64,000 nt of DNA from Anaerolineae bacterium (GTDB lineage Bacteria; Chloroflexota; Anaerolineae; Aggregatilineales; Phototrophicaceae): contig JAGWBD010000005.1 of NCBI GenBank assembly GCA_021296065.1, positions 1-64,000 on the forward strand, in the 5' to 3' direction. A program made the translations under genes and the position numbers. Position 1 is the stretch's first letter, and the number at the start of each line of letters is the position of its first letter. The notes under the pieces are model-generated. The model was not told the DNA's origin. It was given only the letters and a program-made list of their open reading frames with translations, and made no database searches. This document shows positions 24,331 through 25,185 of the stretch, in pieces.

Positions 24331-25185
24331 ATGCTCGCACAAGGCAAGCCCATCAAACCAGTCTGGCGCGCCGTTCAGGCGGTCTTGCTGACCCTGTTGA
24401 CGGCCGCCTGCACGATGCCGACTGTGCTGGACAACTTCCTGTCCGATGCCCAATCCGCCACAGAGCGCGACGCCGTCACTGCGCCTGCGGACCCAACATC
24501 CCGGCCCTTCGTCGCCGACCTGCCGGTGCTGGGCAAAGCGCCGGAATTGCATGACGGCGCCTGGCTAAACACCGCCACACCATTGAGTCTGGCCGGTCTG
24601 CGCGGCAAGGTGGTGGCTCTGGAGATGTGGACCTTCGGGTGAATTAATTGCATCCGGGTGATCCCCTCGTTGAGGGGATGGCATCAGCAATTCGCCGACC
24701 AGGGTCTGGTCGTCATCGGCAACCACTATCCCGAATTCAACTTTGAGCGCGACATCCATGCGGTCCGCGAAGCAGTGCAGCGTCTTGACGTCCCCTACTC
24801 CGTGCTGCAGGACAACGGGCGCGAGACCTGGAACGCCTACAACAATCGCTTCTGGCCCGCGCTTTACCTGATAGACAAACAGGGTCGGATACGCTACCGC
24901 CACTTCGGCGAGGGCCGTTACGAGCAGACGGAACAGGCCATCCGCGACCTGTTGCGCGAGACATGGGACGGGGCAGCCAGCCCGGCTTCAGCCCTGCCGC
25001 CCGGCCTGAACCCGACGGACATCCTCAAAGTGCGCAGTGGCCCGGGTGTGGGCTACGAAATCATCGGCCTCATTTCGCCCGGCGAGGTTTACCGGCGCCA
25101 CGGCGAGCAGGACGGCTGGCACCGCATCCGTCACCAGGGCCGCGAAGGCTACGTCTCGGGCGACTATGTCACCCTCAGCGGGTGA
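24331..25185 (+). CDS. Candidate selenocysteine-containing lipoprotein: thioredoxin-like domain plus C-terminal SH3-like domain (TGA at 24640 read as Sec)
   Basis: Same frame across ORFs 24079..24642 and 24658..25185; LLTAAC lipobox; GKVVALEMWTFG[U]INCIRVIPSLRGWHQQFADQGLVVIGNHYPEF matches TlpA/DipZ-type WTxxCINCxR; SH3 ILKVRSGPGVGYEIIGLISPGEVYRRHGEQDGWHRIRHQGREGYVSGDYV. Confidence 0.75.
24640..24679 (+). promoter_or_regulatory. Putative bacterial SECIS element (UGA + downstream hairpin)
   Basis: TGA at 24640-24642; perfect 8-bp stem ATCCCCTC (24661-24668) / GAGGGGAT (24672-24679), loop GTT with G first; loop starts 27 nt after UGA. Confidence 0.65.

What the first reader, a model, noticed from the sequence alone, without database searches (positions are those of the whole stretch)
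24331..25185. Candidate selenoprotein: Sec at the first redox position of a secreted thioredoxin-SH3 lipoprotein, with SECIS-like hairpin
Seen: ORFs 24079..24642 and 24658..25185 lie in one frame, separated only by TGA at 24640. Joined, they read ...GKVVALEMWTFG-[TGA]-INCIRVIPSLRGWHQQF..., where TlpA/DipZ-type proteins have WTxxCINCxR, so the TGA falls exactly on the resolving/attacking Cys of CxxC (giving UxxC). Starting 18 nt after TGA is a perfect 8-bp stem (ATCCCCTC/GAGGGGAT) with loop GTT; a G at the start of a short loop about 16-37 nt downstream of UGA is the bacterial SECIS pattern. The upstream part has a lipobox (LLTAAC) and the downstream part carries the rest of the Trx fold plus a bacterial SH3 domain; neither half is meaningful alone. 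Inference: co-translational Sec insertion into an envelope redox lipoprotein that automated annotation splits into two ORFs. A point mutation TGC/TGT->TGA is the competing explanation.
Basis: partly seen in the sequence, partly recalled or inferred. Interest (0 to 1): 0.93.

Follow-up and report, generated by a model that had tools for sequence, protein, structure and literature searches.

The report
Selenoprotein: Sec-containing DipZ-type redox lipoprotein
A bacterial gene that looks broken by a stop codon almost certainly uses that codon to insert the rare amino acid selenocysteine into the active site of a secreted, membrane-anchored redox protein; the case is very well supported, but it is a new member of a known kind of selenoprotein, not a new kind of system.

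Summary
ORFs 24331-24639 and 24643-25182 are one gene interrupted only by TGA 24640-24642, where the first (nucleophilic) Cys of WTFGCINC lies in DipZ-type thioredoxin-fold proteins. The host genome encodes tRNA-Sec, SelA, SelD (with its own in-frame TGA) and the start of SelB, cut by a contig end. Two same-genus genomes keep the TGA and hairpin; downstream dN/dS is 0.10-0.14. The same TGA occurs at this codon in 38 of 396 genomes of the class and in at least 120 metagenome contigs; Cys codons occur in 37 of 396, TAA/TAG in none. A SECIS-type stem-loop is found in 132 of 138 TGA sequences against 8 of 45 Cys homologs, with compensatory changes; a model trained without this genus recovers the window hairpin at 47.6 bits. 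Pseudogene, sequencing error, codon reassignment and reinitiation are therefore unlikely. It is not a new kind: UxxC redoxin and Prx-like selenoproteins have been catalogued since 2004-2008. Less usual are the lipoprotein plus SH3 architecture, found with Sec only in this genus here, and repeated Sec/Cys exchange within the family. No protein-level proof exists.

The parts
24331..25185 (+). Whole selenoprotein gene, 284 codons before the final TGA at 25183-25185, including TGA-Sec at codon 104
   Evidence: similarity to L014/L015/G001/G002 begins near here
24331..24411 (+). Lipoprotein signal peptide MLAQGKPIKPVWRAVQAVLLTLLTAAC, lipid-acceptor Cys at 24409-24411
   Evidence: sequence pattern; LLTLLTAAC conserved in L014 and L015; model has a helix at residues 12-25
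24577..24897 (+). Thioredoxin-fold domain, AhpC-TSA PF00578, closest to DipZ
24640..24642 (+). In-frame TGA read as selenocysteine (U of UxxC, nucleophile position)
   Evidence: conserved TGA
24649..24651 (+). TGC, resolving Cys of the UINC motif
24661..24679 (+). bSECIS stem-loop: 8-bp stem, loop GUU with G at 24669, 26 nt between UGA and loop
   Evidence: published constraints in PMC13188914
25024..25170 (+). Bacterial SH3 domain, PF08239

Best explanation
The gene encodes a secreted lipoprotein with a DipZ-type thioredoxin domain and an SH3 domain. SelB carrying Sec-tRNA recognises the stem-loop just after UGA 24640 and inserts selenocysteine there, so the full protein is made (inferred from strong comparative evidence; no protein data). 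Sec is then the nucleophile and Cys 24649 the resolving residue of a UxxC thiol-disulfide (selenenylsulfide) oxidoreductase anchored outside the cell membrane (inferred from family, signal peptide and motif). Substrate and electron donor are unknown.
For: Sec machinery: tRNA-Sec 74 bits, UCA anticodon; SelA 549.7 bits; SelD 354 bits with in-frame TGA in GSAGUASKCGP; SelB N-terminus to a contig end, 201 bits; full SelB in both same-genus genomes. TGA at the same codon in same-genus genomes and others and at least 120 metagenome contigs. TGA 38, TGC/TGT 37, TAA/TAG 0 of 396 genomes. dN/dS 0.10-0.14 downstream of TGA. Hairpin in 132/138 TGA against 8/45 Cys sequences. Covariation: 93.8% paired, 49 double-change cells against 11.7 shuffled. 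Model without this genus: 47.6 bits, only match in the 64 kb. The Sec site aligns with the DipZ active-site Cys and precedes the active-site helix in the model.
Against: No experimental evidence. SelB of this genome is incomplete (contig end, 85% complete MAG). For the window alone the hairpin is only about a 2% event under synonymous resampling. Two poorer TGA-bearing genomes (G446, G511; 78 and 85% complete) show no SelA match. The SelD TGA in the same genome is not followed by a significantly stable fold.
Confidence: 0.95

Rival explanations
1. Nonsense mutation TGC/TGT to TGA, or a sequencing or assembly error: the gene is broken or misread.
For: One base change from TGC/TGT; annotation splits such genes (P0058 starts MIPSLRGWHQ, just after the TGA site).
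Against: TGA shared with two same-genus genomes, downstream dN/dS 0.10-0.14; TGA but never TAA/TAG at this codon across 396 genomes; covarying hairpin tied to TGA.
Confidence: 0.02
2. The downstream half is made separately by reinitiation at GTG 24658; TGA is a true stop and two polypeptides are made.
For: A GTG start candidate follows the TGA (24658) and is kept in same-genus orthologs.
Against: That codon is GTA, ACG, ACC or other non-start codons in about 59% of the same-register TGA homologs; the product would lack both redox residues and part of the fold; the covarying stem-loop is then unexplained.
Confidence: 0.02
3. TGA is reassigned to an ordinary amino acid (Trp or Gly) in this organism.
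For: Alternative codes with TGA as a sense codon exist in some bacteria (general knowledge).
Against: TGA ends this same gene and three of six checked neighbouring genes; homologs have Cys here, not Trp or Gly; Sec machinery is present.
Confidence: 0.01

Closest known systems
Prx-like thiol:disulfide oxidoreductase (PF00578, UxxC/UxxU) and Redoxin family protein (PF08534, UxxC) selenoproteins, as catalogued in PMC13188914 and PMC9312934
   Same: Same Pfam domains, same UxxC motif with Sec first, bacterial, SECIS after the UGA
Mycobacterium tuberculosis DipZ C-terminal thioredoxin domain (PDB 2hyx, 5cyy)
   Same: Closest solved relative by sequence (E 1.5e-41) and by fold; active site CINC aligned with UINC
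   Different: DipZ has Cys, and its chain continues into another C-terminal domain; no SH3
NHLRC2 and bacterial thioredoxin-NHL repeat proteins
   Same: Related thioredoxin domain (6gc1, E 5e-19); TGA forms with a long tail of about 430-470 residues exist in metagenomes
   Different: Long C-terminal part instead of SH3; the NHL identity of those tails is inferred from length and relatives
Pneumococcal Etrx2 exposed lipoprotein thioredoxin and ResA/TlpA family
   Same: Works alike: lipid- or membrane-anchored thioredoxin-fold reductase outside the cytoplasm
   Different: Cys active site, no SH3, about 21-25% identity

Membership tests
Bacterial selenoprotein | In-frame UGA at a redox position where homologs have Cys | tested here: met
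Bacterial selenoprotein | bSECIS: loop 3-9 nt, G in its first two positions, 16-37 nt spacing, stem 4-16 bp, MFE at most -7.5 kcal/mol | tested here: met
   loop GUU, 26 nt, 8 bp, -21 to -27 kcal/mol for the 63-64 nt segment
Bacterial selenoprotein | Conserved, covarying stem-loop linked to UGA | tested here: met
Bacterial selenoprotein | Host encodes SelA, SelB, SelC, SelD | tested here: met
   SelB only its N-terminus at a contig end, full in the same genus
Bacterial selenoprotein | Se present in the protein | not testable with these tools
   needs 75Se labelling or MS
Prx-like / Redoxin UxxC selenoprotein family | PF00578 or PF08534 domain with UxxC motif | tested here: met
   AhpC-TSA 43.2 bits (cut-off 26), Redoxin 33.8 bits (cut-off 26.6); motif
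Prx-like / Redoxin UxxC selenoprotein family | Clusters with the published example proteins (WP_010940744.1, MBA3499694.1) | not testable with these tools
   accessions could not be fetched
DipZ-type thioredoxin domain | Significant similarity including the active-site motif | tested here: met
   E 1.5e-41, CINC aligned; Foldseek E 2.5e-18
Bacterial lipoprotein | Signal peptide with lipobox | tested here: inconclusive
   LLTAAC fits a relaxed lipobox with Thr at -3; seen in the sequence and conserved in L014/L015; no dedicated predictor run

The most novel reading that the evidence does not exclude
The DipZ/NHLRC2-type thioredoxin family is a widespread and so far undescribed selenoprotein subfamily in which Sec and Cys have been exchanged many times, leaving decaying SECIS remnants in Cys genes, and in this genus it has become a surface-anchored Sec enzyme with an SH3 module.
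Probability: 0.45. Interest if true: 0.55.

Novelty: new member of a known kind. Interest (0 to 1): 0.45.

Why it matters
It restores a gene family that automatic annotation cuts in two (P0058 is such a fragment) and shows a bacterial class with frequent natural Sec/Cys exchange at one catalytic position, with nearly equal numbers of genomes carrying TGA (38) and TGC/TGT (37) forms of the motif among 396. That makes it a good test bed for why Sec is kept or lost, and for what SECIS elements need outside the well-studied proteobacteria.

Tried and rejected
Pseudogene or error, reinitiation and code reassignment: see rivals. selA co-occurrence as a test: all 25 good-quality TGA genomes have selA, but so do 210 of 233 good genomes (any match), so it barely discriminates. 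The SelD hairpin as an internal positive control: no significant fold. Hunting further SECIS in the genome with model R1: only the window hairpin is clear, next best 19.5 bits, E 0.28 (the window is in the training set there, so R2 without this genus was used as the fair test). Literature searches for DipZ, NHL, sponge or Chloroflexota selenoproteins found nothing specific; Chloroflexi were credited with 3 selenoproteins in 2006 (PMC1794560). NCBIfam has no model above its cut-off for this protein. Haft and Tolstoy 2025 is not held.

Full report
Observation. Read through, the product from ATG 24331 has a lipoprotein-type signal peptide, an AhpC-TSA/Redoxin domain and an SH3_3 domain. The TGA falls on the first Cys of the WTFGCINC motif of the nearest homologs and of the SCINC motif of M. 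tuberculosis DipZ. An 8-bp stem with loop GUU follows, with 26 nt between TGA and loop, which meets the published bSECIS constraints.

Machinery. The host genome (178 contigs, 85% complete) has a tRNA-Sec with UCA anticodon, SelA, SelD with an in-frame TGA in GSAGUASKCGP and the first ~150 residues of SelB running into a contig end. Both same-genus genomes searched have full-length SelB.

Conservation. Both same-genus genomes (G001, G002; apparently the same species as the Anaerolineaceae MAG records behind L015 and L014) keep TGA and hairpin at about 81% protein identity. dN/dS downstream of the TGA is 0.10-0.14 over 180 codons, against 0.28-0.50 upstream, where signal peptide and linker lie. 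So the part after the stop is selected as protein in the presence of the TGA.

Wider family. In 396 genomes of the class, TGA is found in 38, TGC/TGT in 37, TAA/TAG in none, and the reversed control pattern in none. Random nonsense changes would not be limited to TGA.

SECIS. Under a fixed criterion (stem of 5 or more pairs with at least 3 G-C, G in the first two loop positions, published spacing) 132 of 138 distinct TGA sequences have a hairpin, against 8 of 45 Cys sequences (Fisher p 1e-24, not corrected for relatedness). In 60 sequences of the window's register, 93.8% of cells pair, with 49 double changes against 11.7 in shuffles, and sliding the partner by 1-3 columns drops pairing to 47-60%. 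These sequences were chosen for the loop-closing pair and the loop G; without that pair 31 double changes remain. A covariance model built without this genus finds the window hairpin at 47.6 bits as the only match in the 64 kb. For the window alone, synonymous resampling gives p of about 0.02.

Sec/Cys exchange. On a FastTree tree of 280 sequences the Sec/Cys label needs 18 changes, at least 7 forced by well supported branches; the window and its two orthologs sit inside a supported set with 31 Cys proteins. In one genus (g147), G482 has TGA with loop GUU, while G365 has TGC with the same stem but a loop that lost its G by a synonymous change. This suggests decay of a SECIS after Sec was replaced, though the direction of change was not tested. 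In this sample only the window genus combines Sec with the 180-residue tail that holds the SH3 domain.

Structure and function. The AlphaFold2 model (mean pLDDT 88.6) puts the Sec site directly before the helix at residues 105-124. The best solved matches are DipZ, SOQ1, NHLRC2, ResA and SPOA0173. Function as an envelope thiol-disulfide oxidoreductase is inferred from the family; substrate and redox partner are unknown. The gene lies between a histidine kinase/response regulator and a thioesterase. The order holds in L014, with two small extra ORFs, but no functional link is shown.

Known or new. Reviews list UxxC selenoproteins with PF00578 and PF08534 domains as high-confidence families (PMC13188914, PMC9312934), first reported in 2004-2008 (PMC1088965, PMC2398784, and earlier work cited there). 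The SH3/lipoprotein form and the DipZ/NHLRC2 breadth were not found in the searched literature, but that library lacks most subscription papers. I therefore file it as a new member of a known kind.

Noticed in passing
L184 (G482), L235 (G365), L234 (G415), all genus g147: Within one genus the same gene has TGA with an intact SECIS (G482), TGC with a fossil-like stem whose loop G is lost (G365), and TGC with a decayed stem (G415): a natural Sec/Cys exchange series.
   Followed up: partly
L241 (G503): A Cys (TGT) homolog that still scores 34 bits with the SECIS model, loop G included: possibly a very recent Sec to Cys change, or a stem kept for other reasons.
   Followed up: no
L013 (G000 contig C70), minus strand, TGA within about 2404-2406: SelD of the host genome has an in-frame TGA in GSAGUASKCGP, so it is itself a predicted selenoprotein, but the fold after it is not significantly stable.
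   Followed up: partly
G000 contig C73:12350 (L221): The host also carries a Cys paralog (WTYGCINC) of the family, apparently of the long NHL-repeat type.
   Followed up: no
metagenome loci L048-L167: TGA forms fall into several hairpin types encoding S-L-R, Q-L-R, W-V-R or Y-R/Y-G residues; the Q-L-R type is shifted by one base in register (loop AGUU).
   Followed up: partly
window 17126-18631 (+) and 25683-27209 (-): Two sulfatase-family genes (PF00884) lie near the finding, with a chromate transporter (18638-19798) and a CrtC/lipocalin-type protein (19808-21067, -) nearby.
   Followed up: no
window 21672-24062 (+): A single protein with GAF, PAS, histidine kinase, response regulator and OmpR-type DNA-binding output domains, just upstream of the selenoprotein gene and kept there in L014; a possible regulator, untested.
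   Followed up: no
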